Assembly (NCBI RefSeq): GCF_025995175.1 | Contig: NZ_BAPV01000037.1 | Coordinates: 1-50,930 of the forward strand | Direction of reading: 5' to 3' | Origin: Asaia krungthepensis NRIC 0535 | GTDB taxonomy: Bacteria; Pseudomonadota; Alphaproteobacteria; Acetobacterales; Acetobacteraceae | DNA length: 50,930 bases | Shown: one piece after another, positions 32,035 to 49,331 of the stretch | Position numbering within the stretch: position 1 is the stretch's first letter | Layout: every line of letters starts with the position of its first letter | Made by a program: the position numbers and the translations under genes | Notes under the pieces: generated by a model | The model's database searches: none | The model's input: only the letters and a program-made list of their open reading frames with translations | What the model was told of the DNA's origin: nothing

Positions 32035-32165
32035 CGGACCAGAACCCGCCGTCATGGCTAAGCCGTGGCGCCTCGCCATGCTCACGACCTGCGGTCGCTC
32101 CGCGTGGCTGCGGTGCCGGCGCGCGAGCGCACCGGGCTTAACCCTGCCGCCGGGTCCTGGTGCCG
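32035..32165 (+). repeat. structured element S1
   Basis: This is the first of nine foldable elements in the backbone. Outer helix: CGGACCAGAACCCG with CGGGTCCTGGTGCCG. Second helix: GGCTAAGCC with GGCTTAACC (one C-A mismatch). Inner arm: GCCATGC (32075) with GCGTGGC (32102), capped by CGACC-TGC-GGTCG. A purine-rich GAGGAGAGAGG precedes it. It lies ahead of the large methylase/helicase gene. Confidence 0.7.
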
Positions 32166-32279
32166 GAGATGGAGAAGGGAGAGAGAAAAGAAAATCTCGA
32201 TCCCGGATCCTCTCCAATCACCGCATCCTCCCGCGTCAAAGAGCGCAGGTGAGGTCCGGTCCTGCACGGATGCCAGCCG

Positions 32280-35200
32280 ATGTCGAACGCCGATTTCCAA
32301 CTCAGCCTGTTTGGCGATACCGCCCTTGATGGCAATGCGAACCTCTTCTGGGGTGAACTGGAAGGCGAAGAGGGCGACGCACCGGGCGCGCTGCGGCCTG
32401 CGGTCGAACCCCTTGCCATTCCTCAGAGTGATTTCCGTCTCGCCGGTCTGCGTGGTCTGGCCCAGGGCTGGAAGGCGCGTGCGCGTGACAACATCGAGGC
32501 GATCAAGCTGGTCGCGACCCTCGAGCGCGAGGCCCGAAGCGCGACGAGCGAAGAGCAGGCGCAGCTGAGCCGCTTCACAGGCTTCGGGGCAGGGGATCTG
32601 GCGAATGCGCTTTTCCCCCGCGCCGATGAAGCCTATCGCGCGGGCTGGGAAAAGCTGGGTGCCGATCTCGAGGCCTGCACCACCGAGGCGGAGCGCAGCG
32701 CCCTCGCACGCTCGACCCAGTATGCCCACTACACCCCTGAAACGGTCGTCCATGCCATGTGGGACTTCATGATGGCGCGTGGCTTTGCAGGCGGGTCCGT
32801 CTTGGAGCCGGGTTGCGGGACAGGCCTGTTCGTCGCGTCGCGCCCCGAGAAGCTCGAGGGAAAGATCGCCTTCACCGGCATCGAGATGGACCCGCTCACG
32901 GCGCGCATTGCCGCGAAGCTCTATCCGAAACAGTGGATCCGTGCAGAGGACTTCACCCGTGCGAAGCTGAGCACGGGCTACGATCTGGCGATCGGCAATC
33001 CGCCGTTCTCGAACCGTACCGTGAGCCAGACTGAGCCGCGTGACCTCAAGGGGCTGTCGCTCCATGACTGGTTCCTGGCCCGCTCGATCAATGCCCTGCG
33101 CCCCAATGGGATCGCGGCCTTTGTGATCTCGCGCCACACCCTCGACAAGACCGATGCCCGTGCGCGCACGCTCATTCACGAGGAAGCCGAATTCCTGGGT
33201 GCCGTGCGCCTGCCGGCCAGCACCATGCGCGCCGATGCCGGCACGGATGTGGTCGTGGATATCGTGCTCTTCCGCAAGCGCGAGATCGGCGAGATGCCCG
33301 GTGACGAGACCTGGCTGTCCTGCGTCGATATCGAGGGCACGAACATGGGGGAGGGGGCCCTGCGCATCAATGCGTGGATGGAAGCGCACCCCGAACAGGT
33401 CCTTGGCTTTCATGGCTGGGCCAGCACGGCCTTTGGTATGGATTATACCTGCGTTGCCCGCGACGGGCAGGATCTGGCTGACGCACTCCCCGAAGCCCTC
33501 GGCCGCATTGCACCTGCACTGCGTTTCCCGCCCGTGGCCGATAGTCGCATCGTGCGCCCTGCAAAGGAGACGCGTGAGGAGGGCGGCGACCTGCGTGAAG
33601 GCAGCTACTTCATGGAAGGCGGCATCCTGCATCAGATCGTCGAAGGGCAGGGGAGGGTGGTCGCCATTCGCAAGGGCGAGCAGAAGGAAGGCATCTTCCA
33701 GAAGCACGCGCGTATCATCGAGGCGATGATTCCCGTGCGCGATGCGACCCGCGCCGTGCTGCGGGCGCAGTTCGAGAACAAGCCGTTTGCCGGTCTGCAG
33801 GCGAGCCTCAAGCGTGCCTGGCTGAACTTCACGCGCCAGTTCGGCCCGATCAACCACACGAAGACGACAACCCGCGTCAACGCCGTGACCGGCGCCGAGA
33901 GCGAGACCCAGCGTCGCCCGAACCTGCAGACCTTTCTCGACGATCCCGATGTCTGGCTCGTGTCCTCGATCGAGCGTTATGACGAGGAGACGGATACGGC
34001 CGAGCCGGGGCCGCTCTTTACCGATCGCGTCATTCAGGCGCCGTCCGAACCCGAGATCCATTCCGTCCATGACGCCTTGGCCGTGTGCCTGCACGAGGCC
34101 GGACGCGTCGAGCTGCCGATCGTGGCTGAGTTGATGGGGCAGAGCGAAGAAGCCGTGACGGCCGAGCTGGGCAACAGCATCTTCCTCGAGCCAAGCCGCT
34201 CGAGCAATGGCCGCCCGGTATGGGTGACGTCTGACGAGTATCTTTCCGGTGCCGTGCGCACCAAGCTCGCCGAGGCGCGCGAAGCCGCTGCGCGCGATGC
34301 ACGCTACGCGCGCAACGTCTCAGCCCTCGAGGCCGTGCAGCCCGAGGATCTGCGTCCGAGCGACATTACCGCCCGTCTGGGTGCGCCGTGGGTTCCCGTC
34401 GAGGTCGTGACGGCTTTCGTGTCCGAGGTGATCGGGGTGGAAGCCCGGATCTACCACACCGCTGCCGTGGCCTGCTGGTCGATCGACAAGCAGGCCTTTG
34501 CCGGTCGCGCCGAGGCGACCTCGGTCTGGGGAACCGAGCGCCGTCATGCCGGAGAGCTGCTCGAGGACGCCCTCACACAGGCAAGCCCGAAGATCTTCGA
34601 CACCTATAAGGAGGACGGGGTCGAAAAGCGCGTGCTCAACGCCAAGGAGACCGAGGCCGCCAAGGAGAAGCTCCGGGCGATCCGCAATGCGTTCCAGGAC
34701 TGGGTTTGGCAGGATAGCGAGCGCGCCGACCGCCTCGTGCGCCTGTATAACGAGACCTATAACAATCTCGTCCCGCGCCGCTTCGACGGAAGCCACCTGC
34801 GCCTGCCGGGGGCCAGCTCGGCCATCATGCTGCGCGACCACCAGAAGCGCGTCATCTGGCGCATCATCGCCTCGGGGCGCACCTACATGGCGCATGCCGT
34901 GGGTGCCGGAAAGACCTTCTCCATGTGCGCGGCCGTGATGGAGCAAAAGCGCCTAGGTCTCATCTCCAAGGCGATGATCGTCGTGCCGGGGCACTGCCTG
35001 GCGCAGATGGCTCGCGAGTTCCTGATGCTCTACCCGACCGCGAATATCATGGTCGCCGACGAGACGAACTTCGTGAAGGCCAAACGTCAGAGCTTCATCG
35101 CGCGTGCTGCGACGGGGAACTGGGACGCCATCATCATCACGCATGATGCCTTCAAGTTCATCCCGGTCGAGAGCAGTTTCGAGCGCGAGATGATCGAGGA

Positions 35201-37343
35201 CCAGATCGCGTCCTACGAGGCCATCCTCGATAATGTCGATGCTGACGACCGCCTCTCACGCAAGCGCATCGAACGTATGAAGGAGGGGATGCAGGAGCGT
35301 CTCGAGAGCCTGCAGGGCAGCAAGGACGATCTGGTGCATCTTGGTGAGATCGGCATCGATCAGATCATGGTCGACGAGGCCCAACAGTTCCGCAAGCTCT
35401 CTTTCGCGACGAACCAGTCCGACCTGAAGGGCGTGGACCCGAATGGCAGCCAGCGTGCCTGGGATCTGTTCGTGAAAACCCGCTATCTCGCCCGTAGTAA
35501 TTCCGGTCGCGAGCTTATCCTCGCATCGGGCTCACCGATCACGAACACGATTGGAGAGTTGTTCACCGTCCAGCGCTTCATGGCATTTGAGGATCTGCGC
35601 GCACGCGATCTCCATGAGTTCGACGCCTGGGCTGCGAATTTCGGCGAGACGCGCACCGAGCTCGAGCTGCAGCCGAGCGGGCTCTACAAGCCCGTCACGC
35701 GTTTCACCGAATTCGTCAACGTCGCTGATCTTATGGCCATGTATCGCCATTTCGCCGATGTGGTCCAGCAGGACGACCTGCGCCGCTACGTCAAACTGCC
35801 CGCGATCAAGGGCGGACACCGTGAGATCGTCGTCACGCCCGCCAATGACGACTTCAAGGCCTATCAGCGTACGCTCGCGTACCGGATCAAGGCGATCGAG
35901 GAGCGGGAAGGCAAGCCCCAGAAGGGCGACGATATTCTGCTCTCGGTCATCAATGATGCCCGACACGCCGCGATCGACCCGCGTCTTGTGGGCTGGGGCG
36001 CCAAAGAGTCCAGCAAGCTCGACGATCTGATCGCTCGCGTCCATCGCATCTGGGTCGAGACGAGCGAGAACACCTATCGCGATCTACAGACAGGGGAGAC
36101 CGCGCCGCTTTCAGGCGCCGTGCAGATGATCTTTTCCGATCTCGGCACGGAAGCCGCGTTCGAGAAACGTGGGTTCTCGGCCTATCTGCATATCCGTGAC
36201 GAGCTGACCCGTCTCGGCGTGCCCGCCGATCAGATCGCGTTCATGCAGCATTACAAGAAGGCGGCTGCAAAGCTGCGCCTGTTTGGCGATCTAAACGCAG
36301 GGCGCAAGCGCATCCTGATTGGCAGCACCGCCACCATGGGAACGGGCGTCAACGCCCAGGTCCGTCTGAAGGCTCTGCACCATCTCGATGTGCCCTGGCT
36401 CGTTTCTGACATCATCCAGCGCGGGGGCCGTATCGAGCGACAAGGCAACCAGCATGCCGAAATCGAGATCTACGCCTATGCGCAGGAAGGCTCGGTCGAT
36501 GCGACCAACTGGCAGCTTCTCGAGCGCAAGCTGCGCTTCATCGCGCTCGCCATGTCAGGCGATCGCTCGATCCGTCGGATCGAGGACATCAACGATGAGG
36601 GCAATCAGTTCGCTATGGCCAAAGCGCTCGCCTCTGGCGATATGCGCCTGATGCAGAAAGCCGGACTGGAAGCCGATCTCGCGCGTCTCGAGCGTCTTGC
36701 AGCCGCGCATTACGATGACCAGTTCGCTGTCCGTCGTTCGATCCAGACTGGCGAGCGTGAGCTGGCGTCGCTCGAACGTCGGATCCCGGCCCTGGAGGCC
36801 GATCTCGCGCAGCGGGTGGAGACGCGCGGCGAGGCCTTTTCCTTCGAGGGACCGCGTGGCGTTCTGGCCGAGCGCGAGAAAGCCGGGGCATGGCTTTTGT
36901 CCCAGGCGCGCAGGGTGGAGAAGAACCGCGAGGTAGGCTCGTGGCGTCTCGGCCGTATCGGTGGTTTCGAGATCCTGCTCGAAGCAGCACAGACGCGGTT
37001 TCTTGATGATGGAACGCCGAAGATCGAGGCAGGCCTTGCGATCGCGTTCACGTCCACCCCGTCCGAAGTGTCGTTTGATCGCGACACCAAACCGCTTGGC
37101 CTGATTTCGAAAATCGAGCACCGGCTCGGCCGCATCGAGACAGAGCTGATGGAAACCCGCAAGGCGCGTGACGAGATCACCGCCCGTCTGCCTGCCTATC
37201 GCGCGCGGCTTGGCACGCCGTTCCGCGACCAGGCAGTGCTCGATGAGAAGAAGCGCGCTCTCGCAGAACTTGAGGCCGATCTGGCGTCCGACGCCGAGGC
37301 CGATGCCGCATCGGAAGTGGGTGAAACCCCGATAGCCGCGTGA
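32280..37343 (+). CDS. large N6-adenine methylase plus SNF2-like helicase protein
   Basis: This 1687-residue cytoplasmic protein combines two enzyme modules. Near residues 172-245 is an N6 methyltransferase (SVLEPGCGTGLFVASRP and AIGNPPFSNR). From about residue 855 is a helicase: IMLRDHQKRVIWRIIASGRT, MAHAVGAGKTFSM (Walker A), MVDEAQQFRKLS (Walker B), and QRGGRIERQGNQ in the second lobe. A coiled-coil tail follows. Such plasmid and phage proteins resemble the DarB-type anti-restriction group. I infer protection or modification of incoming DNA. ATG 32280 has only a weak ribosome site. It is the first backbone gene after S1. Confidence 0.88.
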   Translation: MSNADFQLSLFGDTALDGNANLFWGELEGEEGDAPGALRPAVEPLAIPQSDFRLAGLRGLAQGWKARARDNIEAIKLVATLEREARSATSEEQAQLSRFTGFGAGDLANALFPRADEAYRAGWEKLGADLEACTTEAERSALARSTQYAHYTPETVVHAMWDFMMARGFAGGSVLEPGCGTGLFVASRPEKLEGKIAFTGIEMDPLTARIAAKLYPKQWIRAEDFTRAKLSTGYDLAIGNPPFSNRTVSQTEPRDLKGLSLHDWFLARSINALRPNGIAAFVISRHTLDKTDARARTLIHEEAEFLGAVRLPASTMRADAGTDVVVDIVLFRKREIGEMPGDETWLSCVDIEGTNMGEGALRINAWMEAHPEQVLGFHGWASTAFGMDYTCVARDGQDLADALPEALGRIAPALRFPPVADSRIVRPAKETREEGGDLREGSYFMEGGILHQIVEGQGRVVAIRKGEQKEGIFQKHARIIEAMIPVRDATRAVLRAQFENKPFAGLQASLKRAWLNFTRQFGPINHTKTTTRVNAVTGAESETQRRPNLQTFLDDPDVWLVSSIERYDEETDTAEPGPLFTDRVIQAPSEPEIHSVHDALAVCLHEAGRVELPIVAELMGQSEEAVTAELGNSIFLEPSRSSNGRPVWVTSDEYLSGAVRTKLAEAREAAARDARYARNVSALEAVQPEDLRPSDITARLGAPWVPVEVVTAFVSEVIGVEARIYHTAAVACWSIDKQAFAGRAEATSVWGTERRHAGELLEDALTQASPKIFDTYKEDGVEKRVLNAKETEAAKEKLRAIRNAFQDWVWQDSERADRLVRLYNETYNNLVPRRFDGSHLRLPGASSAIMLRDHQKRVIWRIIASGRTYMAHAVGAGKTFSMCAAVMEQKRLGLISKAMIVVPGHCLAQMAREFLMLYPTANIMVADETNFVKAKRQSFIARAATGNWDAIIITHDAFKFIPVESSFEREMIEDQIASYEAILDNVDADDRLSRKRIERMKEGMQERLESLQGSKDDLVHLGEIGIDQIMVDEAQQFRKLSFATNQSDLKGVDPNGSQRAWDLFVKTRYLARSNSGRELILASGSPITNTIGELFTVQRFMAFEDLRARDLHEFDAWAANFGETRTELELQPSGLYKPVTRFTEFVNVADLMAMYRHFADVVQQDDLRRYVKLPAIKGGHREIVVTPANDDFKAYQRTLAYRIKAIEEREGKPQKGDDILLSVINDARHAAIDPRLVGWGAKESSKLDDLIARVHRIWVETSENTYRDLQTGETAPLSGAVQMIFSDLGTEAAFEKRGFSAYLHIRDELTRLGVPADQIAFMQHYKKAAAKLRLFGDLNAGRKRILIGSTATMGTGVNAQVRLKALHHLDVPWLVSDIIQRGGRIERQGNQHAEIEIYAYAQEGSVDATNWQLLERKLRFIALAMSGDRSIRRIEDINDEGNQFAMAKALASGDMRLMQKAGLEADLARLERLAAAHYDDQFAVRRSIQTGERELASLERRIPALEADLAQRVETRGEAFSFEGPRGVLAEREKAGAWLLSQARRVEKNREVGSWRLGRIGGFEILLEAAQTRFLDDGTPKIEAGLAIAFTSTPSEVSFDRDTKPLGLISKIEHRLGRIETELMETRKARDEITARLPAYRARLGTPFRDQAVLDEKKRALAELEADLASDAEADAASEVGETPIAA

Positions 37344-37358
37344 GGGAAGGAGAGGGGC

Positions 37359-37478
37359 GGTAGCTGACGGGATCTGCCCGCCTCAATCGGTGGGTCCTCC
37401 CCATGCTCGCAAGCTGCGCGTGGGTCCGGTCCCGGCGCTCGCGCGCCGCGACTGACCCGGTCCGACCCGCCAGCTACC
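37359..37478 (+). repeat. structured element S2
   Basis: This is the clearest copy. Outer helix GGTAGCTGACGGG with CCCGCCAGCTACC (one A-C mismatch). P2 TCAATCG (37383) with CGACTGA (37449). P3 CCCATGC (37400) with GCGTGGG (37418). P4 CGGCGC-TCGC-GCGCCG (37433-37448). It ends 55 bp before the next start. Confidence 0.85.
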
Positions 37479-37533
37479 GGAAGGGATAAGCGCAAAGAAT
37501 ATCAAGGTGCGCGAGACAACCCCGGAGACCTCC

Positions 37534-37920
37534 ATGACGACTGCCCTTACCAAAGCCGAACTCGCCCGGTTCTACGGCACCTCGAAATATTATCGGTATA
37601 CATTCGGTCTGGTTCTCACAGACGGCGCTGCATTTCTGGTCAAAAACGGGGCAGGCTGGCTTGTCGATGTGATCGCATCTGCACGCCTCGATCCGAAAGT
37701 TCGGCGAGAGCCATTCGAAGCATGGTCTTTGCAGGTCGATCTCAAGACGAACGCTGCCGTCGTCACATGCACGGACGGAGGCAAGGAAGGGCGGGAGCCG
37801 GTAACACTCTTTGCGCAGGACATTCCCTATACGGATTTTCCGCTCGAGAGCCTCGAACTCTATGCGATCAGCGACGAGGGCCTAGGGGCCAAGGTCGTCA
37901 TGCTGACCTCTGAATACTGA
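37534..37920 (+). CDS. small plasmid protein (DUF6876-like)
   Basis: This 128-residue protein begins MTTALTKAELARFYGTSKYY and contains LTDGAAFLVKNGAGWLVDVI then LDPKVRREPFEAW. This pattern resembles the DUF6876 family of plasmid proteins (tentative). It has no signal or membrane span. GGAG lies before the ATG. It is the first gene after S2 and opens a three-gene run. Function unknown. Confidence 0.78.
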   Translation: MTTALTKAELARFYGTSKYYRYTFGLVLTDGAAFLVKNGAGWLVDVIASARLDPKVRREPFEAWSLQVDLKTNAAVVTCTDGGKEGREPVTLFAQDIPYTDFPLESLELYAISDEGLGAKVVMLTSEY

Positions 37921-37932
37921 GGGAGGCCGGCT

Positions 37933-38876: not shown

Positions 38877-38890
38877 GGGAGGAGAGGGGC

Positions 38891-39010
38891 GGTAGCTGAC
38901 GGGATCGGTCCGCATCAAGCGGTGGGTCCTCCCCATGCTCGCAGGCTGCGCGTGGGTCCGGTCCCGGCGCTTACGCGCCGCGCCTGACCCGGCCCGACCC
39001 GCGAACTACC
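38891..39010 (+). repeat. structured element S3
   Basis: Same layout as S2. P2 is TCAAGCG (38915) with CGCCTGA (38981), a T-A to G-C change relative to S2. P4 is CGGCGC-TTAC-GCGCCG (38965-38980). The outer helix GGTAGCTGACGGG with CCCGCGAACTACC is weaker. It precedes ardC by 51 bp. Confidence 0.82.
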
Positions 39011-39061
39011 GGAGAGGTCAAGCTCAGAGAAAGAGCGCACACCAAATCCGGAGCCTCTCCC

Positions 39062-39715
39062 ATGACCGACCGTACCCGCGCCGACCTTCACCAGGAAACG
39101 ACCGACCGTATCATCACTGAACTCGAAAAAGGCTATGCGCCTTGGGTTCAGCCGTGGACCAACACCATGACGTCAGGGTCCTTGCCGCGTAATGCGACGA
39201 CGGAAAGCCGCTATAGCGGGATCAACGTCATCCTGCTCTGGATCGCCGGGCAAACAGGCGGTTTTAGCGCACAGCGTTGGCTGACCTACAGGCAGGCTGA
39301 GAAACTGGGTGGAAATGTACGCAAGGGCGAGAAAGGCACGACAGTCTTCTATGCCAATCGCTTTGTGCCCAAGAGCCAGGTCGAGCGCGACGATCCAAAG
39401 ACGATCGCGTTTCTCAAGCGCTACACTGTTTTCAACATCGAGCAATGCGAGGGCCTGCCTGAAAGCGCATGCGAGCTCCCGGCTCATACGCCACTGGCCG
39501 AGCGTCACGAGGCTGCCGAGGCCGTGATTGCAGCCACCAAAGCGCATATCCGCTTTGGCGGAAACAAGGCTTTCTACTCGCCCGTTCTGGACTACATCGC
39601 TCTTCCACAGCGTGAGGCTTTCGCCGACAGGCCCGGTCCGCCTCAATCGGTGGGTCCTCCCCATGCTCGCAAGCTGCGCGTGGGTCCGGTCCCGGCGCTT
39701 CTGCGCCGCGACTGA
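39062..39715 (+). pseudogene. ardC: ArdC-type anti-restriction protein, truncated by an S element
   Basis: The N-terminal single-strand-DNA-binding domain is complete: TTDRIITELEKGYAPWVQPW, YSGINVILLWIAGQ, WLTYRQAEKLGGNVRKGEKG. The frame then reaches SPVLDYIALPQREAF and runs straight into element S4, ending in read-through residues. The zinc metallopeptidase half with HExxH, present in full-length ArdC, is absent. The 217-residue product might still bind single-stranded DNA, but the gene is best viewed as truncated. The ATG lies 51 bp after S3. Confidence 0.82.
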
Positions 39716-39730
39716 CCCGGACCGCCCCTG
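39628..39730 (+). repeat. structured element S4 (overlaps the ardC end)
   Basis: P2 (TCAATCG/CGACTGA), P3 (CCCATGC/GCGTGGG) and P4 (CGGCGC-TTCT-GCGCCG) match S2. The outer helix differs: CAGGCCCGGTCCG with CGGACCGCCCCTG, 11 of 13 paired. Its 5' arm lies inside the ardC frame. Confidence 0.8.
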
Positions 39731-39766
39731 ACGACTAGCCGGGAAGTCGTAAAGGAAGAAGAAATC

Positions 39767-41455: not shown

Positions 41456-41467
41456 GCCGTTGACCCG

Positions 41468-41490: not shown

Positions 41491-41504
41491 GAAAGGAGAA
41501 AGGG

Positions 41505-41624
41505 GGTAGGTGACGGGATCGGCCCGCATCAAGCGGTGGGTCCTCCCCATGCTCGCAAGCTGCGCGTGGGTCCGGTCCCGGCGCTAACGCGCCGCGCCTG
41601 ACCCGGTCCGACCCGCCACCTACC
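41505..41624 (+). repeat. structured element S5
   Basis: The outer helix is GGTAGGTGACGGG with CCCGCCACCTACC: both arms differ from S2 at the paired position (C-G to G-C). P2 TCAAGCG/CGCCTGA. P4 CGGCGC-TAAC-GCGCCG. It ends 53 bp before the next start. Confidence 0.85.
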
Positions 41625-41677
41625 GGAACGGTCAAGCGCAGAGATTAGAGCGCGAGACAAAAGCCGGAGACAGGACA

Positions 41678-42169: not shown

Positions 42170-42229
42170 CGCCCCCAAAAACCTACAAATGAAACCGCTC
42201 CTGCGCGCAGCGCAGGAGATGAGGAGACT

Positions 42230-42400
42230 TAACATCTTCCTCGCCCTGAAGGGCGAGGATTTCTCCGGTCAGACCGGATGTAGTTTTCGCTTCGACGCCC
42301 CAGTTACCTGTGGCTCCACGACAGGAGTGTTCCCCCTGTGAAGAATATTGAGGGCGGCATTGTGATCGGCATTGGCATGGAAGCCGCATGTAGTGCAGAC
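42230..42400 (-). ncRNA. probable omega RNA at the tnpB 3' end
   Basis: In TnpB systems the guide RNA overlaps the tnpB 3' end and the right end of the element. Here two hairpins, TCCGGT-CAG-ACCGGA (42264-42278) and the 9-bp CCTCGCCCT stem, sit at that place. The guide would come from the flanking DNA below about 42230. Position and role are inferred from the family. Confidence 0.45.
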
Positions 42401-43453
42401 GAAGGACGCTTGGTTCTTGCGGCTTCGACTGTCCACGGCTCCGCAGCACGAACACGTCTGCGAGGTAAAGCGCGGGTCCACCTTCACGACACGATGGGCT
42501 TTGTAAAAGAGCAGCGTTTCGATCTGGTGCCAGCCCACGTTGAGAATAGCGCGGTTGAGCCCGCGCTTCTGTGCGACGTTGCTGCCGGGGTTCTCCAGGG
42601 TTCCGGCGGCACTGGCGGTCATGTCTCTGGTGCGCAGTCGCTCGATAATCGCAGTTCCGTGGTTCCGGCAGATGGCGGTTGTAGTCTCGTGCGCCCAGTG
42701 CTTGCGGATACGGGCGGCCTTTGCTTTGAGTGCTGCAACGCGCTTGCGGGCAAAGGTGTGACGGTTCGAACCCCGTTTGCGGCGTGCGAGGACGCGTTGT
42801 GCCCTACGTGCCTGTCTCTCGATGACGTCGAGCCGTTCCGGCAGCACGTACGCCGTGCCATCGGAGAGCATGAGCGGCACGGACACGCCCCGATCAATGC
42901 CAACCGCGCCCTCGGTCGCAAAGTCGCGGATGTCGCAGTCCTTGCAACCAAAGCCGATCTGCCAGCCGAGGGCCGTGAGGCTGACGGTTGCTTCCGTCAG
43001 TTTACCCGTCAGGTTCCGCGTCATGCGGAACTTGACCCAGCCTATCTTCGGCAGACGGACACGGCCCCAGCGGCTGTTCAGGCGCTCAACGGTTATCTCA
43101 CGACCGTTGAAGGTGAAGGTATCGTTCACGCCTTTCTTCTTCGGTTGCGGATAGCCGCCGAGACCCTTGAAGAAACGGCGGTAAGCATTGTCCAGCGCCT
43201 TGAGCGCGTATTGCTGGCAGGTCTGGCTGACAGCCCGGATAAAGTCTACCTCGCGACGGAGCGCCGTCAGTTCCCGCGCCTGCGTCACGTAGTTCAGGTT
43301 GTCGCCGGTTCTGGCCTGATAGTTCCGCCAGTGTTCGCGGCGCTGTTCAAGAGCAAGATTCCACACAAGACGGCAGACGCCCGCGGATTGAAGGAAGGCT
43401 TCTTCCTGCAAGGCGTTGGGCTTGAGCCTGTATGTGAAGCCACGAAACGACAT
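42269..43453 (-). CDS. tnpB: TnpB RNA-guided nuclease
   Basis: This 394-residue protein has all TnpB marks: an N-terminal helix-turn-helix-like region (FRGFTYRLKPNALQEEAF), a split RuvC domain with Asp187 (VGIDRGVS), Glu271 (IIERLRTRD) and Asp363 (NADHNAALNI), and a zinc ribbon (C334-x2-C337, C353-x2-C356). The active residues are intact, so it may cut DNA under an omega RNA guide. It lies opposite to the backbone genes and interrupts their run. Confidence 0.92.
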   Translation of the reverse strand: MSFRGFTYRLKPNALQEEAFLQSAGVCRLVWNLALEQRREHWRNYQARTGDNLNYVTQARELTALRREVDFIRAVSQTCQQYALKALDNAYRRFFKGLGGYPQPKKKGVNDTFTFNGREITVERLNSRWGRVRLPKIGWVKFRMTRNLTGKLTEATVSLTALGWQIGFGCKDCDIRDFATEGAVGIDRGVSVPLMLSDGTAYVLPERLDVIERQARRAQRVLARRKRGSNRHTFARKRVAALKAKAARIRKHWAHETTTAICRNHGTAIIERLRTRDMTASAAGTLENPGSNVAQKRGLNRAILNVGWHQIETLLFYKAHRVVKVDPRFTSQTCSCCGAVDSRSRKNQASFVCTTCGFHANADHNAALNILHRGNTPVVEPQVTGASKRKLHPV

Positions 43454-43544
43454 GCAATTAGCTTGGTATGGAAAGCCGGGTCAGTAAAGAGCTGAGCCGC
43501 TTTCCTCCCCGGCCTGAACGCCGGGGTTTCCAGCGGAGTTTAGG

Positions 43545-43991
43545 ATGATAGATCGCGCACGAAGCGAGCTGAATGATGCCATCATAAACTTTGTGACGAG
43601 CGAACGTGAACGATGCGCCGACCTCGGTTTGTACTGTGAATGGACACGTGCGCTCGAGCCCACAATCACCACCTGCTATCCCGGCTCGCCTGCCGCAGTG
43701 GCAGACCCTTGCGCCTTGGAATCGAAATGCAATGCCCTGCCATGGCAGCTTGCCGATGATCCTGCGACCTATGGTGCGCAGGCAGGCCATTGGATTGTTG
43801 TGGATGGATCTCTGGATCAGGAGATCGAGGAGGACATCTACCCGACCGAGGCCGAGGCACAGGCGGCAGCAGACAGGATCAACGCAGCAGATCCGCTGAC
43901 CGAACAATATCACCACTGGTTCGTGCTTCACCTGCCCGAAAGCTGGGATATCGCCGCGCTTGTGTCCAAAATTGCGCAGGAGGCGGCGTGA
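43545..43991 (+). CDS. hypothetical backbone protein
   Basis: This 148-residue soluble protein begins MIDRARSELNDAIINFVTSE and includes PTEAEAQAAADRINAADP, a pattern seen in small plasmid proteins with a ligand-fold repeat. It is not recognised. It starts just right of the TnpB element and overlaps the next gene (TGATG), so those two are coupled. Its promoter may have been displaced by the TnpB insertion. Confidence 0.72.
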   Translation: MIDRARSELNDAIINFVTSERERCADLGLYCEWTRALEPTITTCYPGSPAAVADPCALESKCNALPWQLADDPATYGAQAGHWIVVDGSLDQEIEEDIYPTEAEAQAAADRINAADPLTEQYHHWFVLHLPESWDIAALVSKIAQEAA

Positions 43992-44296
43992 TGGGCAATC
44001 GCAGCCATGATATTTTCGTGGCGATCGGCAGCGCGGCCGATATCGAGCGCCTGCGTACGCAATTGATGGTCGAGGTGGCGCCAGCCGTCGTACCTTCGGG
44101 CCTGTGGGAACTGGATTTCGACCAGCTCGGCGCCGATGACGGCCCCACCTATTTTCTGGGTGACCGCATCAGCGCAGAGTTCCCTGAGATTGCATTGTCC
44201 TGTCATTACCATCCCGAAGGATCGAACTGGGCGTTGCAAGGCGTCGCAGAGTGGCATGCAGGTAAGCGTTGGCGCGAGATCATAGTGCCGACCTAG
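43991..44296 (+). CDS. hypothetical backbone protein
   Basis: This 101-residue protein starts MGNRSHDIFVAIGSAADIER and ends EWHAGKRWREIIVPT. No domain is recognised. ATG 43991 shares a base with the stop of the preceding gene; the longer upstream frame is a shadow. It is followed by S6. Confidence 0.7.
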   Translation: MGNRSHDIFVAIGSAADIERLRTQLMVEVAPAVVPSGLWELDFDQLGADDGPTYFLGDRISAEFPEIALSCHYHPEGSNWALQGVAEWHAGKRWREIIVPT

Positions 44297-44345
44297 GCGT
44301 CCCGTCGTCTCGAATGCATCCATAGAACGCCGCACACAGGAGAGA

Positions 44346-44491
44346 GGGGGAAACCAGAACGGCGCAGCCGGCGCAATCGGTGGGTCGGCATCGCGTCCTC
44401 GCCATGCTCGCAAGCTGCGCGTGGCTGCGGGTCGATGCCGATCCCGACGCATGAGCGCCGCGATTGCCCCGGCTACGCCGTCCCGGTCCCC
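44346..44491 (+). repeat. structured element S6 (longest copy)
   Basis: Three helices are stacked with single mismatches: ACGGCG with CGCCGT, AGCCGG with CCGGCT, and GCAATCG (44373) with CGATTGC (44461). An extra arm TCGGCATCG with CGATGCCGA (44433) carries P3, here GCCATGC with GCGTGGC. It precedes ssb by about 110 bp. Confidence 0.85.
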
Positions 44492-44600
44492 GGGAAGCAT
44501 CAAGAGAGAAATATGATCCCGAACAGGCAGAGCAACTGCTTCGACTGTGCGCCAGGTGGCCGGGACGATCCTCTCTTCATGCAGTCACGGAGATCCCCTC

Positions 44601-45074
44601 ATGTCAGGAAGCGTCAACAAGGTCATTCTCGTAGGCAATCTCGGTCGCGACCCGGAAGTCCGTCACGCCCAATCTGGCGCGAAGATCGTCAATCTGACGG
44701 TTGCCACGAGCGAAGGCTGGAATGACCGTAATTCGGGCGAGCGCAAGGAGCGCACCGAGTGGCATCGCGTCGTGATCTTCAACGAACGCCTTGCCGATGT
44801 GGCCGAGCGCTTCCTGCGCAAGGGCCGCAAGGTCTACGTCGAGGGGCAGCTTCAGACCCGCAAATGGACCGATCAGTCCGGCCAGGACCGCTACACCTCA
44901 GAGATCGTTCTCGACCGCTTCCGTGGCGAGCTCACCCTGCTCGATAACGCGCAGAGCTACAGTGATGAGAGCCGCTACGGCCTTGATGATCGTCCCTCCC
45001 GTGATGCGCCGCCGCGTCAGCCGCAAGGTGGCGGCAACTCCAGCTCAGATCTGGACGACGAGGTCCCGTTCTAA
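44601..45074 (+). CDS. ssb: single-stranded DNA-binding protein
   Basis: This 157-residue SSB has the OB fold ([80 protein letters not shown]). It has a flexible Gly/Pro/Gln linker and the conserved acidic tail DLDDEVPF that recruits partner proteins. Plasmid SSBs act on the incoming strand during conjugation and can damp the SOS response. ATG 44601 follows GGAG. It is the first gene after S6. Confidence 0.96.
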
Positions 45075-45092
45075 GGCCCAGTCTGAAGCGCA

Positions 45093-45115
45093 GGGGCACC
45101 CAACACGCGTGCCCC
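45093..45115 (+). terminator. hairpin after ssb
   Basis: GGGGCAC and GTGCCCC form a 7-bp stem around a 9-base loop, 18 bp past the ssb stop. No T-run follows. Confidence 0.5.
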
Positions 45116-45137
45116 ACCAACAAAGCAGAGAGGGCTA

Positions 45138-45216
45138 CGGGACGTCGCTTTTCGCATCAAGGGAAGGCTGCGCCCGACGCTAGCGCGTCGCCCTTGACCC
45201 GAAAACCGACGCCCCG
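45138..45216 (+). repeat. structured element S7 (minimal copy)
   Basis: Outer helix CGGGACGTCG with CGACGCCCCG (one A-C mismatch). P2 TCAAGGG (45157) with CCCTTGA (45191). One apical hairpin GACGC-TAGC-GCGTC. The P3 arm is missing. It ends 33 bp before the zinc-ribbon gene. Confidence 0.78.
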
Positions 45217-45248
45217 TCGCGCGGGAGGCAATCAAGAGGAGATTGTCG

Positions 45249-45632
45249 ATGACCTACGACCTGTTTTCCAGAAAAAATCCGACTTTCAGCACGCCGGTTC
45301 GCTGGTCCTGCACGTCCGAAAGCGTCACTTGCCGCCGTTGCCATCACGAATGGGATGACGGTGATCCGGCCTATCGCTTCGCCTGTCCCGACTGCAATGC
45401 CACGCCCGGAAATCCCTGCCAGCGCAGCGCGGGCGGCAATGAGCGCGTCTGCCCCGGCCGCGATCGCGTAGCCCAGGCCGCAAAGCTCCTCGGTCCCTGC
45501 GAGGGGCTGAGCTGGGACGGTCGTCACGACAAACCGCTGCCACTGAGAGCCAGCCGCACCAACCCTGCATGGCAACTGGTCCGTACCGGATCGCCAGTCG
45601 CCCGCTCCTTCAACGAACGTTACCCCTCCTAA
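45249..45632 (+). CDS. zinc-ribbon plasmid protein
   Basis: This 127-residue protein has a cysteine-rich middle: CTSESVTCRRCHHEW, then CPDCNATPGNPC with C-x2-C and a further Cys, likely a zinc ribbon that binds nucleic acid. The rest is unstructured. ATG 45249 follows AAGAGGAG. It is the first gene after S7 and is paired with the small gene at 45644. Function unknown. Confidence 0.75.
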   Translation: MTYDLFSRKNPTFSTPVRWSCTSESVTCRRCHHEWDDGDPAYRFACPDCNATPGNPCQRSAGGNERVCPGRDRVAQAAKLLGPCEGLSWDGRHDKPLPLRASRTNPAWQLVRTGSPVARSFNERYPS

Positions 45633-45643
45633 GGAGACGCAGG

Positions 45644-45892
45644 ATGAGCTTCGAATTTCTCGCCAATCACGACTACGCCCTTGAGGCAGGGCGGGTGCGC
45701 ACCGACTGTGCATGGGTGCTCAGCGACCGTGACGTCTGGTACCCCAATCCTCTTTATGTCGGATTGCGCGTTCCCCACCCGGAAGACGACAGCGCTCATG
45801 ACTATGTCAGCGAGCACGGCATCGATGCATGGCGCGATCTTACGGCTCCAAAAACGGTAACGCCGCTTGAGGAGTGGGAGATCCCATACTGA
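45644..45892 (+). CDS. hypothetical small backbone protein
   Basis: This 82-residue protein begins MSFEFLANHDYALEAGRVRT and ends TPLEEWEIPY, with many tryptophan, tyrosine and acidic residues. It is not recognised. AAGGAGACGCAGG precedes the ATG, the same leader as at 46484. It lies 11 bp after the zinc-ribbon gene. Confidence 0.68.
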   Translation: MSFEFLANHDYALEAGRVRTDCAWVLSDRDVWYPNPLYVGLRVPHPEDDSAHDYVSEHGIDAWRDLTAPKTVTPLEEWEIPY

Positions 45893-46235
45893 CGCAACTG
45901 AACATTTGGGCCGCCTGATGAGCCGGGCATAGGCGAAACGGGCCAGAGGGCACACCTCTGCACCGTCGCGGCCCCATATCTCGTAGCCGGGTCAGATGCC
46001 GCGGGGCCGTGGTGTCGCGCCCATTGTCAGAGGAGAGTCCTCCGTGATCGTTTTGATTGTGGTGGACAGGAAATGGCTCTCGAAATCTCTTCGTAAAACG
46101 AAGAAAGCCCTTCAGGCGGTTACAGCCGCTCTGAAGAGCCTTTTCGAGTAGCATTTTCACACCGATCGAGGGGCTATCTTTTCCCGAGGTACCCCTCGAT
46201 CACCTCCGATGATGGTCAATCCGGATACGATTTTC
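45893..46235. other. intergenic stretch with a foldable region and a small frame
   Basis: At 45940-46022, GGGC...GCACACC faces GGTGTCGCGCCC and an inner CGGCCCC faces GGGGCCG. This may be a diverged relative of the S elements ahead of the small frame at 46044. Another hairpin, CTTCAG...CTGAAG (46109-46135), precedes a CCTTTTC. ATCGAGGGG and CCCCTCGAT form a third stem at about 46163-46200. Confidence 0.45.
46044..46151 (+). CDS. possible small basic amphipathic peptide
   Basis: A 35-codon frame starts GTG with GGAG eight bases upstream. The peptide has a hydrophobic start (MIVLIVVDRKWLSKSLRK) and a basic amphipathic rest (TKKALQAVTAALKSLFE). Size and character recall type I toxins or membrane-active peptides. 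It is short and has no homologue that I know of, so it may be chance. It is followed by a hairpin and T-rich DNA. Confidence 0.35.
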   Translation: MIVLIVVDRKWLSKSLRKTKKALQAVTAALKSLFE

Positions 46236-46275
46236 AAGGGCGATGTCTCTACGCAGAGGCATCGCCCTTTTCTTT
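46236..46275 (+). terminator. Rho-independent terminator
   Basis: AAGGGCGATG and CATCGCCCTT form a 10-bp stem with inner CTCT/AGAG pairing, followed by TTCTTT. It ends the ssb-to-46151 run before S8. Confidence 0.78.
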
Positions 46276-46337
46276 GCCCTCTTCACATCCACCCTCCCTC
46301 ATCACGGCGCAACCCACGAGACAATGAGGAGAGAGGG

Positions 46338-46448
46338 GCTGACACAAACGCCAGTCCGCCGCCAGGGCGTCGCCATGCTCGCAAGCTGCGCGTGGCTCCG
46401 TGAACGGCGCGCGCGCCGCCCTGGCCCCGGCCAGTCGTTCGCGTCAGC
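46338..46448 (+). repeat. structured element S8
   Basis: Outer helix GCTGACACAAACG with CGTTCGCGTCAGC (two A-C mismatches). Inner helix GCCAGGGCG (46361) with CGCCCTGGC (46417), perfect. P3 GCCATGC (46372) with GCGTGGC (46390). It precedes the LPD29-like gene by 35 bp. Confidence 0.8.
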
Positions 46449-46483
46449 GGGAGGGCATCCAGCAGAAATAAAGGAGACGCAGG

Positions 46484-47164
46484 ATGTCAGACACAGCACA
46501 TACCCTCGAAGTGGGCACGATGGTTTCAACACCCCTCTACGACAGAGGGCGTGGCTATATCACGGCGATCCATGGGGAACAGATGCCACAAACAGTCAAG
46601 CGCATCGGTGGCATCATGGGCACCGGAGGCAACGCGCACTTCGATATCATCTTCGAAATCGGCGCTCGTTCAGTACGGCTACCGGAGTGCATCATTCATG
46701 GCCCGCAGTGGAAAATATACCCCAAGGACGCGGGGTTCGCCGAAGGATGGCGTCTTGCCGAGCTCGAGAAACTTGCATCGGATCTCGAGGCTGCGCAGCT
46801 CGCGCAGGAACGCGAGGAAGAGGCGGCGTTCGCACGTGCGGTCGAGGCCCTGAAAGCCGACCCGGCTTACGCCGATCTGGAACAGGGTGACGCTCGCGAC
46901 GGAGCACTCGCGGCGAAGAACATCCGCAAACTTCTCAAGGCTGCGTTCAAGACAACGAAATTCAGCGTTCGCAAGTCGGATTACGGCAGCATTTACGTTC
47001 GCTGGAGCGACGGTCCGTCTGAAGATCAGGTGTCTGAGATCACCGGCCGCTTCAAGACCGGCACATTCGATCACTACAGCGACTGCGCCAGGCAGGAAGA
47101 CACGCCATGGAGCAAGTCGTTCGGCGGTGCCGAGTATGTCTTCACCTCCCGATCCGAAGCCTGA
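46484..47164 (+). CDS. LPD29-like domain protein
   Basis: This 226-residue protein has a small beta-rich start (HTLEVGTMVSTPLYDRGRGY), a charged helical middle, and a C-terminal part, KNIRKLLKAAFKTTKFSVRK then SIYVRWSDGPSEDQVSEI. That part resembles the large polyvalent protein domain LPD29 found in mobile elements. It is probably a conjugation- or defence-linked accessory; the role is unknown. AAGGAGACGCAGG precedes the ATG. It is followed by a strong terminator. Confidence 0.8.
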   Translation: MSDTAHTLEVGTMVSTPLYDRGRGYITAIHGEQMPQTVKRIGGIMGTGGNAHFDIIFEIGARSVRLPECIIHGPQWKIYPKDAGFAEGWRLAELEKLASDLEAAQLAQEREEEAAFARAVEALKADPAYADLEQGDARDGALAAKNIRKLLKAAFKTTKFSVRKSDYGSIYVRWSDGPSEDQVSEITGRFKTGTFDHYSDCARQEDTPWSKSFGGAEYVFTSRSEA

Positions 47165-47180
47165 TCCTTTCCATTCCCTC

Positions 47181-47205
47181 AAGCCGCCGCAAGGCGGCTT
47201 TTTCG
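47181..47205 (+). terminator. Rho-independent terminator
   Basis: AAGCCGCC-GCAA-GGCGGCTT is a perfect stem with a GCAA tetraloop, followed by TTTCG. It lies 16 bp after the LPD29-like gene stop. Confidence 0.88.
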
Positions 47206-47222
47206 TATTCAGGAGACACACG

Positions 47223-47849
47223 ATGACCCGTTTCCAGTTGGTCGCGTCCCCCGCCGCACGCGTTCAGAAATCCGACGAGTATTCGATCGAGCCCACCCCC
47301 GGGATTTTTGCGGACCTCTCCCATGAGGCAGACGTCACGAACGCGGACTCCCTTGCGAACGCGATGAACAGTTTCGGCCAGCTGATCCGTCAGCGCTCAC
47401 GCGAACTGTCCTTTCTCGTTTGCGCCGAGATCGCTCCAGGCGCGCGCAAGCCGCGCTGGTACGCCCGCTGCGCACGAAACGGCGGACTGCGCGACGAGGC
47501 GTTCTTGTTCACGATCATGCTCGATGCGACGATCGAGGACGGAACGCCCCCCGTGCGCATGTGGGGGGCAAAAGCGGCGCCATTCCAGCTCAGCGATCGC
47601 GCTCCTGTCTGGACGGACGCTGAGCCCGACGAGTTCACGCCTCATGCTCACGGGCATCTCGGCTATTATGGCTGGCTGCGAATGATCAATGCCCGTGTTC
47701 AGTTGCTCACAAACTCGCGCTGCTCCTTGTTCGACCGTACCGACGCGTCAATCATGACCAGGCGATATAAGGACCGTCACCACCCCTTCGTCGTGGCGAC
47801 CGAGCTTATGAGCGCTGGTTACTGCGTCCCGCATAGCGGAACGGAGTAA
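47223..47849 (+). CDS. hypothetical backbone protein
   Basis: This 208-residue soluble protein begins MTRFQLVASPAARVQKSDEY and contains SRELSFLVCAEIAPGARKPR and FTPHAHGHLGYYGWLRMINA. It is not recognised. It starts 18 bp after the terminator, with AGGAGACACACG ahead of the ATG, and is followed by three closely spaced genes. This run has no S element in front of it, unlike most others. Confidence 0.72.
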   Translation: MTRFQLVASPAARVQKSDEYSIEPTPGIFADLSHEADVTNADSLANAMNSFGQLIRQRSRELSFLVCAEIAPGARKPRWYARCARNGGLRDEAFLFTIMLDATIEDGTPPVRMWGAKAAPFQLSDRAPVWTDAEPDEFTPHAHGHLGYYGWLRMINARVQLLTNSRCSLFDRTDASIMTRRYKDRHHPFVVATELMSAGYCVPHSGTE

Positions 47850-47854
47850 GAGCC

Positions 47855-48256
47855 ATGCCTCGCTTCGATGTAAAAATTGTCGAACGCCTCATCATGATAG
47901 ATGAGGCGACCCTCTCGATAGAGGCCTGCAACGCAGAAACGGCAGCACGCATCGTGCTGTCGGGTGTTTCTGACGATACCAGTGGCGGCGTCCGTTCCGT
48001 CATCCTGCCTGATGGATCAACTGCCTCCCTCGACCCCGATACGGTCGAGGATACGGATATCCTTGCCGAGGTCCGCGCATCCGGCAGCGAAGACCTGATC
48101 CTGACCTGTGGTGCCTCTGATTTCCTTCGGACGGATCGCGACATGCGTCGGGATCTGGATGGAATCCTTGCGCGCGCAATTTTGGACACACGTCACCCCG
48201 AGAGCCACGACGCGGCTCGGCGCTTGCGCGTCTGGCTAAAGGAGCATGACGCATGA
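47855..48256 (+). CDS. hypothetical backbone protein
   Basis: This 133-residue protein begins MPRFDVKIVERLIMIDEATL, close in style to the start of the 38574 gene (MPRYTVKIGFWL). It may share a small beta-alpha fold with that protein. It has no known domain. Its end overlaps the next start (ATGA). Confidence 0.7.
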   Translation: MPRFDVKIVERLIMIDEATLSIEACNAETAARIVLSGVSDDTSGGVRSVILPDGSTASLDPDTVEDTDILAEVRASGSEDLILTCGASDFLRTDRDMRRDLDGILARAILDTRHPESHDAARRLRVWLKEHDA

Positions 48257-48543
48257 GCGTTCGTAAGTTCCTCGATCTCAGCACGGGACATCTCTCGCAG
48301 CACGACCGCGAGCAGCTCACAGCAATGCTGACCGAACAGCCACCCTACGCATCAAGCAGCTCGATGACGGGTGAAAGGGGATGGCTGATCTACGTATCGA
48401 CCGACCCGGATCCTGCGCATTGGAGTGAGATCCCAGCGCTCGTCGCAATCCTCGCCCGCGCCCGTGAGCTGGACTGCGATTACGTCCTGCTCGATGCGGA
48501 CGGCCCGGTCGATGAGACCCTTCCATTCTTGGATGAGGACTGA
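48253..48543 (+). CDS. DUF5983-like protein
   Basis: This 96-residue protein begins with LDLSTGHLSQHDREQLTAML and ends DCDYVLLDADGPVDETLPFL. Both are characteristic of DUF5983, a small family on plasmids and other mobile elements. The function is unknown. It is coupled to the upstream gene by a 4-base overlap. Confidence 0.8.
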   Translation: MSVRKFLDLSTGHLSQHDREQLTAMLTEQPPYASSSSMTGERGWLIYVSTDPDPAHWSEIPALVAILARARELDCDYVLLDADGPVDETLPFLDED

Positions 48544-48548
48544 CTGCA

Positions 48549-49139
48549 ATGCCCAACCACTACACAAAATTCTCTACTCTTCTGCCGCTATGCAGCGCTA
48601 AAGCGGGCATTCTGGCCCTTGAATTGCTCGAAGCAATGCGCGCGGAAGGTGCTGACGGGGCCTTTGAGTCGGACTCTGTAGGCTTTGAAGCCGAGGCGAA
48701 CGAGCCTCCTGATTCCGAGCTCCAGCATCTGTGGATTCACCATGATGAACGTGGGTCGATCGAGGACGTGCTGACCTTCGTGTACGCCTGCTGCGAGAAG
48801 AAGCTCACCCTGCCGGTTCGCTGGAGTCTGATCTGGACTGGTGATTGCAGCAAGCCATGCCTTGATGCGTATTGCGGCGGTGCAATCGTGCTGGACCTTG
48901 CAACGGGCAAGGAAATCGCCTCGCTCAGTCTTACAAACTGGGCGCACCAGATCGAGCACTCCACCCATCAGGTGTTCGATGTCGATCGCGAGGCTGCCGC
49001 TCAGGCCCATGACTGCGTCATGCAGAACCAGCATGGCGAGGCCACATCAGAGACACCCGCCATGCTCCCCATCCGCACCGCTCTCGCGGCGGCGGCGTTT
49101 GGGCAAACCGTCACTATCAGTGGCGTCGGCCCCGACTGA
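48549..49139 (+). CDS. hypothetical backbone protein
   Basis: This 196-residue protein begins MPNHYTKFSTLLPLCSAKAG and includes LQHLWIHHDERGSIEDVLTF and SLIWTGDCSKPCLDAYCGGA. Similar small proteins occur beside DUF5983 genes on plasmids, but I give it no family name. It lies 5 bp after the DUF5983-like gene and is followed by S9. Confidence 0.73.
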   Translation: MPNHYTKFSTLLPLCSAKAGILALELLEAMRAEGADGAFESDSVGFEAEANEPPDSELQHLWIHHDERGSIEDVLTFVYACCEKKLTLPVRWSLIWTGDCSKPCLDAYCGGAIVLDLATGKEIASLSLTNWAHQIEHSTHQVFDVDREAAAQAHDCVMQNQHGEATSETPAMLPIRTALAAAAFGQTVTISGVGPD

Positions 49140-49217
49140 TCCTCCCCAATGCCGTCCGCCCTAAGAGGCCAGTGGACCGCTGGGGAGGTGCCGAAGAAAA
49201 CGAGAGAAGAGGAGAGG

Positions 49218-49331
49218 GACCGCTCTCATGGCGCGCACAGCCCTACAAGGGGTTGTCGCTCCGCTCCCGACGCGCCGTGCCGGCGCATCCCCCTTTCCGG
49301 GCTGCACGCCCCATGAGCTGCGGATCGGGTC
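49218..49331 (+). repeat. structured element S9 (divergent copy)
   Basis: CTCATGG (49225) pairs with CCATGAG (49311), and the next GCGCGCACAGCCC pairs mostly with GGGCTGCACGC (16 of 19 positions over the whole helix). The centre is GC-rich, with CCGGCGC. The purine-rich GAAGAGGAGAGGG lead is present. Confidence 0.65.

What the first reader, a model, noticed from the sequence alone, without database searches (positions are those of the whole stretch)
32035..49331. Nine-copy family of foldable intergenic elements with compensatory changes
Elements S1-S9 sit between backbone genes, mostly 35-110 bp before a start. Core copies share an outer helix, a P2 helix and two arms. Paired positions change together. 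P2 is TCAATCG/CGACTGA (S2, S4), TCAAGCG/CGCCTGA (S3, S5), GCAATCG/CGATTGC (S6) and TCAAGGG/CCCTTGA (S7). P3 is CCCATGC/GCGTGGG (S2-S5) but GCCATGC/GCGTGGC (S1, S6, S8). The outer helix is GGTAGCTG/CAGCTACC (S2) but GGTAGGTG/CACCTACC (S5). P4 keeps CGGCGC/GCGCCG with four different tetraloops. This is covariation, so the fold is under selection. I know of no described family matching it.
Basis: seen in the sequence. Interest (0 to 1): 0.95.

Follow-up and report, generated by a model that had tools for sequence, protein, structure and literature searches.

The report
Plasmid hairpins folding as transferred DNA
A plasmid of acetic-acid-type bacteria carries hairpins in front of its early-transfer genes, and their imperfect pairs show that the DNA strand complementary to the gene message, very probably the strand sent to the new host, is the one that folds, so they look like a new family of switches for turning genes on from single-stranded DNA.

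Summary
The nine elements are real. A covariance model finds seven (S1-S6, S8); S7 is borderline and S9 is missed, but both are hairpins beyond shuffling. All lie about 27-117 nt before a co-oriented start. Covariation is strong (127 two-sided cells against 39 in shuffles) and no Rfam family matches. The family is widespread: 64 of 299 genomes of the window's family, plus other alphaproteobacteria.

The implied plus-strand RNA reading is probably wrong. In 61 chosen copies (window, annotated plasmids, multi-copy contigs) the MINUS strand folds better as DNA 58 to 2; plus-sense A-C (minus G-T) outnumber G-T 71 to 22; other mismatches are pyrimidine-pyrimidine in plus (purine-purine in minus) 99 to 18. 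Random stretches of the same loci show no such bias in energy or mismatches and little in wobbles.

The elements precede ArdC, SSB, methyltransferase and similar genes, are co-oriented (45 of 46 neighbour pairs), and point at a MOBF relaxase on 21 of 22 contigs with one nearby, as in F's leading region. The minus strand would be the transferred strand and the genes' template.

Best reading: a new family of single-stranded-DNA promoters or priming sites, Frpo-like in position and polarity, unrelated in sequence, without a recognisable -10 box. Function is untested.

The parts
32035..32166 (-). S1 hairpin (folds as minus strand), before the 1687-aa helicase/methyltransferase-like gene (start 32280)
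   Evidence: R1 66.0 bits; arm score 0/300 shuffles; DNA MFE minus -46.9, plus -38.1
37358..37479 (-). S2 hairpin, before the DUF6876 gene (start 37507)
   Evidence: R1 73.4 bits; minus -42.0, plus -35.9; Pfam
38890..39011 (-). S3 hairpin, before the ArdC gene (39062)
   Evidence: R1 74.2 bits; 6/300 shuffles; Pfam ArdcN
39623..39735 (-). S4 hairpin, overlapping the 3' end of ardC, before the C5-methyltransferase gene (39767)
   Evidence: R1 75.2 bits; arms weakest of the nine, 23/300 shuffles; Pfam
41505..41624 (-). S5 hairpin, before the DUF6878 gene (41678)
   Evidence: R1 76.6 bits; 0/300; Pfam
44347..44491 (-). S6 hairpin, before ssb (ATG near 44601 by reading; ORF listed from 44547)
   Evidence: R1 39.3 bits; 0/300, minus -58.2, plus -50.3; SSB
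45134..45220 (-). S7 hairpin, P3 arm lost, before a small ORF (ATG at 45249)
   Evidence: R1 17.1 bits, E 0.052; 0/300
46338..46448 (-). S8 hairpin, before the ORF starting 46484
   Evidence: R1 39.5 bits; 0/300
49225..49317 (-). S9 degenerate hairpin, before a small ORF (ATG at 49434, about 58 aa by reading)
   Evidence: not found by R1; arm score 0/300 shuffles
32280..37343 (+). large helicase / methyltransferase-like protein
   Evidence: ResIII 2.2e-5; SNF2 and Eco57I below the curated cut-offs
39062..39715 (+). ArdC-like anti-restriction protein
   Evidence: ArdcN 2.3e-40
44547..45074 (+). single-strand binding protein
   Evidence: SSB 2e-35

Best explanation
The elements are single-stranded-DNA control sites of a conjugative leading region. 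During transfer the T-strand enters the recipient 5' end first. Here it would be the minus strand, which is also the template of the plus-strand leading genes. Each element then folds into a long, interrupted hairpin (outer stem, P2, and in most a P3 arm and a P4 hairpin, with recurrent internal loops TSCTC/TSCGSK in plus sense). The hairpin gives host RNA polymerase a double-stranded landing site just upstream of one anti-restriction, SSB or methyltransferase gene, so that gene is transcribed (and perhaps complementary-strand synthesis primed) before the plasmid becomes double-stranded; conversion to duplex dissolves the hairpin and shuts it off. Shown here: a covarying hairpin family; folding of the minus strand; position before co-oriented leading-type genes; polarity towards the relaxase. 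Inferred: that the minus strand is the T-strand (no nic mapped), that a polymerase uses the hairpin, and the on/off logic, which is taken from plasmid F.
For: Strand of folding, in 61 chosen copies (8 from the window): DNA minimum energy lower for minus in 58, plus in 2, with 20-nt flanks (mean -5.4 kcal/mol); A-C in plus (= G-T in minus) 71 against G-T 22, p 3.5e-7; by sequence cluster 21 against 3 with 5 ties; pyrimidine-pyrimidine mismatches 99 against 18 purine-purine, clusters 22 against 3 with 4 ties. Wobble and mismatch counts use the 38 of 61 copies whose arms passed the filter. Control: 596 random stretches of the same loci in the same orientation give minus lower 306, plus lower 278; chance arms A-C 311, G-T 252, pyrimidine 154, purine 170. 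Repeated in 57 pattern-found members ('other' class, 34 scored for mismatches; a few come from the same contigs as the 61): A-C 40, G-T 18; pyrimidine 79, purine 16; minus lower 45, plus lower 10. All nine window elements: minus lower. Polarity: 45 of 46 neighbouring listed copies within 30 kb co-oriented; a MOBF relaxase within 45 kb lies ahead and co-oriented on 21 of 22 contigs. Gene context: 53 downstream ORFs give ArdC 10, SSB 5, Helicase_C 5, C5-methylase 3, DUF6878 3, ParB_N 2. In 11 annotated plasmid loci 19 of 22 model hits at E <= 0.01 have a co-oriented CDS start within 320 nt (counted by eye). F's leading region has the same gene kinds and polarity, and its region upstream of ssb folds into one long hairpin. 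Frpo biology: PMC9849209 and PMC11541004 (passages).
Against: No -10 consensus at spacings 8-39 nt from the conserved TTG in the 5' arm's complement (52 of 61 copies), nor in the 3' arm's base profile, whereas Frpo is reported to rebuild both -35 and -10 boxes. The T-strand is inferred, not mapped; the window's own MOBF relaxase lies on another contig. F's own hairpin, a single case, shows no clear asymmetry by my test (A-C 4, G-T 2; pyrimidine 3, purine 4), and its two strands fold about equally well (-63.7 and -62.3). Type B copies show no clear strand preference, and some pattern-found copies precede chromosomal-type genes; a Shinella plasmid has an inverted pair, one copy with no gene ahead. 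Two of the 61 (L213) lie on a 3.6-Mb contig, and several other source contigs show no relaxase. For MobA_MobL relaxases only 3 of 6 same-contig cases fit, 1 is co-oriented but behind, 2 are opposite (by eye). In an earlier wider set of 123 elements (58 scored) wobble asymmetry was not significant (49 against 40); in 135 model-aligned copies P2 favours minus (A-C 24, G-T 8) but the apex goes the other way (11 against 23) and P4 is even. The invariant P3 T-G is a wobble in plus and A-C in minus: with RNA parameters the core favours plus, 111 against 11 in the 123, and in the 61 without flanks 41 against 18.
Confidence: 0.6

Rival explanations
1. Structured RNA in the 5' leader of each mRNA (riboswitch, attenuator or translation control).
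For: Sits about 27-117 nt before starts in transcript orientation; strong covariation; RNA folding of the core favours plus (111 of 122; 41 of 59); the invariant T-G pair would be a G-U.
Against: Outer-stem irregularities favour minus (control 111); one-sided G-U changes rare, 6 against 127, versus 11 against 45 in a TPP riboswitch control; the TPP control folds better as plus by DNA and RNA parameters (27 and 23 of 28); no Rfam match; the same element precedes unrelated genes.
Confidence: 0.12
2. Single-strand initiation (priming) sites: the T-strand hairpins recruit a primase, primosome or polymerase to start the complementary strand, with little role in gene expression.
For: Same minus-strand and leading-region evidence; Frpo itself is described as both promoter and primer site (title of Masai and Arai 1997, seen in the reference list); no -10 box.
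Against: Nine copies in 17 kb, each close before a gene start, is more than priming needs.
Confidence: 0.15
3. A REP- or MITE-like dispersed hairpin that inserts into single-stranded DNA in one orientation and is otherwise passive.
For: Type B and other copies exist before chromosomal-type genes; insertion into a transferred single strand could give uniform orientation; a sub-family has a duplicated tail.
Against: Compensatory change over very diverged copies, spacing to gene starts, leading-gene context; no clear other copy in the 3.5-Mb genome; REPs are described as 20-40 bp (start of the abstract of PMC3733652 in the listing), these are about 87-145 nt.
Confidence: 0.07
4. Antisense RNA from the minus strand, with the hairpin as its functional fold.
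For: Minus-strand folding would fit; RNA parameters with 20-nt flanks also favour minus, 46 against 15.
Against: No reason for the fixed polarity towards the relaxase. I did not look for minus-strand promoters.
Confidence: 0.06

Closest known systems
Frpo1/Frpo2 of plasmid F and the ssi sequences of ColIb-P9 (single-stranded DNA promoters)
   Same: Long interrupted hairpins in the leading region, before ssb and other leading genes whose template is the transferred strand; more than one copy per plasmid.
   Different: No similarity to model R1 in F 45-68 kb (best 12.5 bits, E 0.35); no -10 box found; GC-rich, with a conserved P3 arm and a repeated internal-loop module; nine on this plasmid; hosts mostly alphaproteobacteria.
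Candidate Frpo elements of Samuel et al. 2024 (PMC11541004, passages seen)
   Same: Leading-region, upstream of anti-defence genes.
   Different: Those were found by BLAST to Frpo/ssi or by -35/-10/UP consensus; the word alphaproteobacteria does not occur in the main text.
Rfam families, including plasmid-gene motifs such as DUF3085 (recalled name)
   Same: Covarying intergenic structure near plasmid genes.
   Different: No family of 4227 matches at the elements in the window, L010, L012 or seven further loci; the hits listed are chance-level or lie elsewhere (suhB in L012).
REP/BIME palindromes
   Same: Dispersed extragenic hairpins.
   Different: Longer, confined to one contig here, tied to gene starts.

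Membership tests
Frpo/ssi single-stranded DNA promoters | Located in the leading region, genes pointing towards oriT | tested here: met
   21 of 22 contigs with a MOBF relaxase within 45 kb; gene families. oriT itself not mapped, so this is by relaxase position; MobA_MobL cases fit only 3 of 6.
Frpo/ssi single-stranded DNA promoters | The strand that is template for the genes (T-strand) forms the hairpin | tested here: met
   Minus strand favoured by energy, wobble and mismatch (control 111). That this strand is the one transferred is inferred.
Frpo/ssi single-stranded DNA promoters | -35 and -10 boxes rebuilt in the stem | tested here: not met
   TTG conserved in the P2 3' arm (85/100/96% of 56 rows, partly by how rows were anchored); no -10 at spacers 8-39.
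Frpo/ssi single-stranded DNA promoters | Sequence or model similarity to Frpo | tested here: not met
   R1 against F 45-68 kb: best E 0.35. Other known Frpo/ssi sequences not compared.
Frpo/ssi single-stranded DNA promoters | RNA polymerase starts transcription on the single-stranded form | not testable with these tools
   needs bench work
cis-acting leader RNA | Plus strand folds; G-U pairs tolerated over A-C | tested here: not met
   Outer stems A-C 71, G-T 22 in plus sense; TPP control the other way. The conserved core alone favours plus.
Known Rfam family | Match at gathering score | tested here: not met
   none at the element positions in the 10 sources scanned
REP elements | 20-40 bp palindromes, many per genome | tested here: not met
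   about 87-145 nt; one contig only

The most novel reading that the evidence does not exclude
A separately evolved class of single-stranded-DNA gene switches in alphaproteobacterial plasmids, recognised through folded DNA shape (a repeated internal-loop module and G-A, G-G and G-T pairs in the transferred strand) rather than through -35/-10 boxes, with a switch before most leading genes or operons.
Probability: 0.4. Interest if true: 0.9.

Novelty: new variant of a known kind. Interest (0 to 1): 0.8.

Why it matters
Single-stranded promoters are experimentally known from F and ColIb-type plasmids of enterobacteria (passages). A covarying family of well over a hundred distinct copies (135), unrelated in sequence, would show that the strategy arose or persists in another class of bacteria, give a search model for leading regions and anti-defence genes there, and let the question 'which features of the fold does the polymerase read' be asked by comparison. 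The mismatch-asymmetry test, which tells which strand of a hairpin is under selection, could be used on other orphan hairpin families.

Tried and rejected
Rejected: a double-stranded operator (KorB-like), because pairing rather than sequence is kept in P2, P4 and the apex; a small leader peptide from the conserved ATG CTC, because the apical insert length is not held to multiples of three; phage origin (no phage match for S2; 7 viral-contig stretches with the core pattern).

Led nowhere: the sigma70-like -10 search; the wobble test on the whole mixed family (not significant, before sub-types were split); crude ORF calling over the mixed family, 53 of 115 with a co-oriented ORF against 26 of 115 divergent, and in the 61-copy set 53 of 61 against 37 of 61 (ORF calls in GC-rich DNA are noisy); class and phylum samples, where besides the own genome 1 of 384 and 1 of 397 genomes matched at E 1e-6 with only 11 candidates scored per genome, so lower bounds; literature searches for earlier reports, none of whose listings, nor the passages seen, describes this family.

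Selection to keep in mind: the 61-copy set is the 38 R1 hits (regions I picked for multiple copies or high scores), 8 window copies and 15 hits from annotated plasmids; I left out L014 (1), L016 (3, near copies of L010), L141 (2) and L143 (1). Wobble and mismatch counts use the 38 of 61 whose arms aligned over 12 or more columns at 80% Watson-Crick. The wobble counts of random chance arms lean slightly to A-C (311 against 252). The counts rest on the 150 listed rows (more were not listed). Of 49 same-contig element-TrwC pairs, 31 fit directly; 9 are co-oriented and fit only if the contig is circular (G281:C2, G022:C2, G022:C3), 4 are discordant and far (G135:C2 two, G249:C10, G022:C2), 1 discordant and near (G179:C13), 4 lie on one 3.6-Mb contig (G153:C18). 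The names of L097-L133 were not shown, so taxonomy of the pattern hits rests on the 80 listed. The left 31 kb of the window was not studied.

Full report
CHECKING THE OBSERVATION. From 28 diverse copies (4 window, the rest Acetobacter, Roseomonas and pattern hits) I built alignment A2 and covariance model R1. On the structure P2 / junction stem / P3 / apex / P4, 91.7% of cells pair, 127 cells are changed on both sides against 38.9 in shuffles, and sliding the partners destroys the signal. R1 finds S1-S6 and S8 in the window; S7 is borderline and S9 is missed. S7 has lost P3 and S9 keeps only a hairpin, yet no shuffle of 300 pairs its arms as well; S4 is the weakest hairpin, with 23 of 300 shuffles as good. 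In the rest of the 3.5-Mb genome there is one hit at E <= 1, on contig C12, at E 0.91.

HOW WIDESPREAD. blastn finds 11 plasmid records with S2 and 52 with the element of L044, a Brucella-named contig. R1 matches 64 of 299 genomes of the window's family at E 1e-4. Class and phylum samples give one further genome each, both of the same class, with few candidates scored. No Rfam family matches the elements.

WHICH STRAND FOLDS. A hairpin has the same Watson-Crick pairs on both strands, so only imperfect pairs tell them apart. I aligned the two outer arms with a score that treats all transitions alike. In 61 chosen copies (38 scored), A-C in plus (= G-T in minus) outnumbers G-T in plus 71 to 22, in 21 of 24 untied sequence clusters. 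Other mismatches are pyrimidine-pyrimidine in plus, hence G-A, G-G and A-A in minus, 99 to 18. DNA energies favour minus 58 to 2 with 20-nt flanks, 47 to 13 without, and in all nine window elements. Random stretches of the same loci do not: energies 306 to 278, mismatches 154 to 170, wobbles 311 to 252. The class 'other' repeats the bias (40:18, 79:16, 45:10); the tail sub-family shares the mismatch bias (41:11) but not the wobble bias (26 A-C, 35 G-T); the type B class shows neither clearly; F's own hairpin, one case, is even. A TPP riboswitch control from the same bacterial family behaves as a plus-strand RNA should. Against this: the conserved core alone, with its invariant plus-strand T-G, folds better as plus RNA, and wobbles in the apex lean to plus. 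One caution: strand-biased deamination of transferred DNA could add A-C in plus without selection, but it would not explain the transversion-type mismatches.

WHERE THEY SIT. Genes after the elements are leading-region genes: of 53 ORFs scanned, ArdC 10, SSB 5, Helicase_C 5, C5-methylase 3, DUF6878 3, ParB_N 2, BrnT 1 and others. In a more mixed set of 51 ORFs the same kinds appear (ArdC 3, SSB 3, ArdA 2, C5-methylase 2) beside chromosomal-type genes. Neighbouring copies are co-oriented in 45 of 46 pairs; a MOBF relaxase within 45 kb lies ahead and co-oriented on 21 of 22 contigs. MobA_MobL relaxases give a mixed picture, 3 of 6. Plasmid F shows the same layout: methylase, antirestriction, SSB and ParB-like genes pointing towards traM (oriT beside it is recalled), with a long hairpin before ssb. 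By the rule that relaxase genes enter last (PMC11541004, passage), the T-strand over this region is the minus strand of the elements and the template of the genes.

MECHANISM. Taken together, the simplest reading is a single-stranded-DNA promoter or start site of the Frpo kind: in F such hairpins drive early, transient leading-gene expression and their deletion abolishes it (PMC9849209, passages). Membership in Frpo itself fails on two tested features: similarity and a -10 box. The conserved TTG in the P2 arm may act as a -35 contact; in several copies, S2 among them, the outer stem ends about where a -10 would begin, so a template already single-stranded there might need no -10; other copies have longer stems. 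That last point is inference.

ANATOMY WORTH KEEPING. The same internal-loop module, 5'-TSCTC...TSCGSK-3' in plus sense, recurs in one element: TCCTC/TCCGGK at the base of P3, TGCTC/TGCGCG at its tip, and TGCTC/TGCGCG again in the outer stem of many non-window members (read by eye). In the minus strand it reads as a GSA/GA loop. Its recurrence suggests a recognised three-dimensional motif.

Noticed in passing
L014, L021, L022, L044, L048, L052, L128 and others (37 pattern matches among 118 elements; at least the window and L057 ones look like chance): A sub-family has a conserved tail TCGGGACGA-x ... TCGAACAA-x in which a variable, roughly 7-nt purine-rich x is duplicated some 25-70 nt apart and changes together between elements; unexplained (operator pair, cleavage or target repeat?).
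   Followed up: partly
L019, L034, L067, L070 and similar loci: A 'type B' sub-family (CCCG-TCCTC / TCCGGG-CGGG junction, no P4), seen in Acuticoccus and one alphaproteobacterial MAG, shows no clear strand preference; several pattern-found members precede chromosomal-type genes. May be a domesticated or mobile offshoot.
   Followed up: partly
L141:12012-12100 and 16721-16809: Shinella 25-kb plasmid with two copies of equal score in inverted orientation around the partition and toxin-antitoxin genes, each placed close after a gene end.
   Followed up: no
window 14760-15060 and 22803-23103: 301-nt inverted repeat, 93% complementary, 7.7 kb apart; likely ends or copies of an insertion element.
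   Followed up: no
window 42180-43495: Two tight hairpins beside a 394-aa minus-strand ORF whose end resembles a TnpB zinc-finger tail (motif recalled; that ORF was not scanned); possible IS200/IS605-type insertion among the leading genes.
   Followed up: no
window 28455-29891: Tyrosine recombinase gene just before the leading region; Acetobacter relatives also carry one upstream of repA.
   Followed up: no
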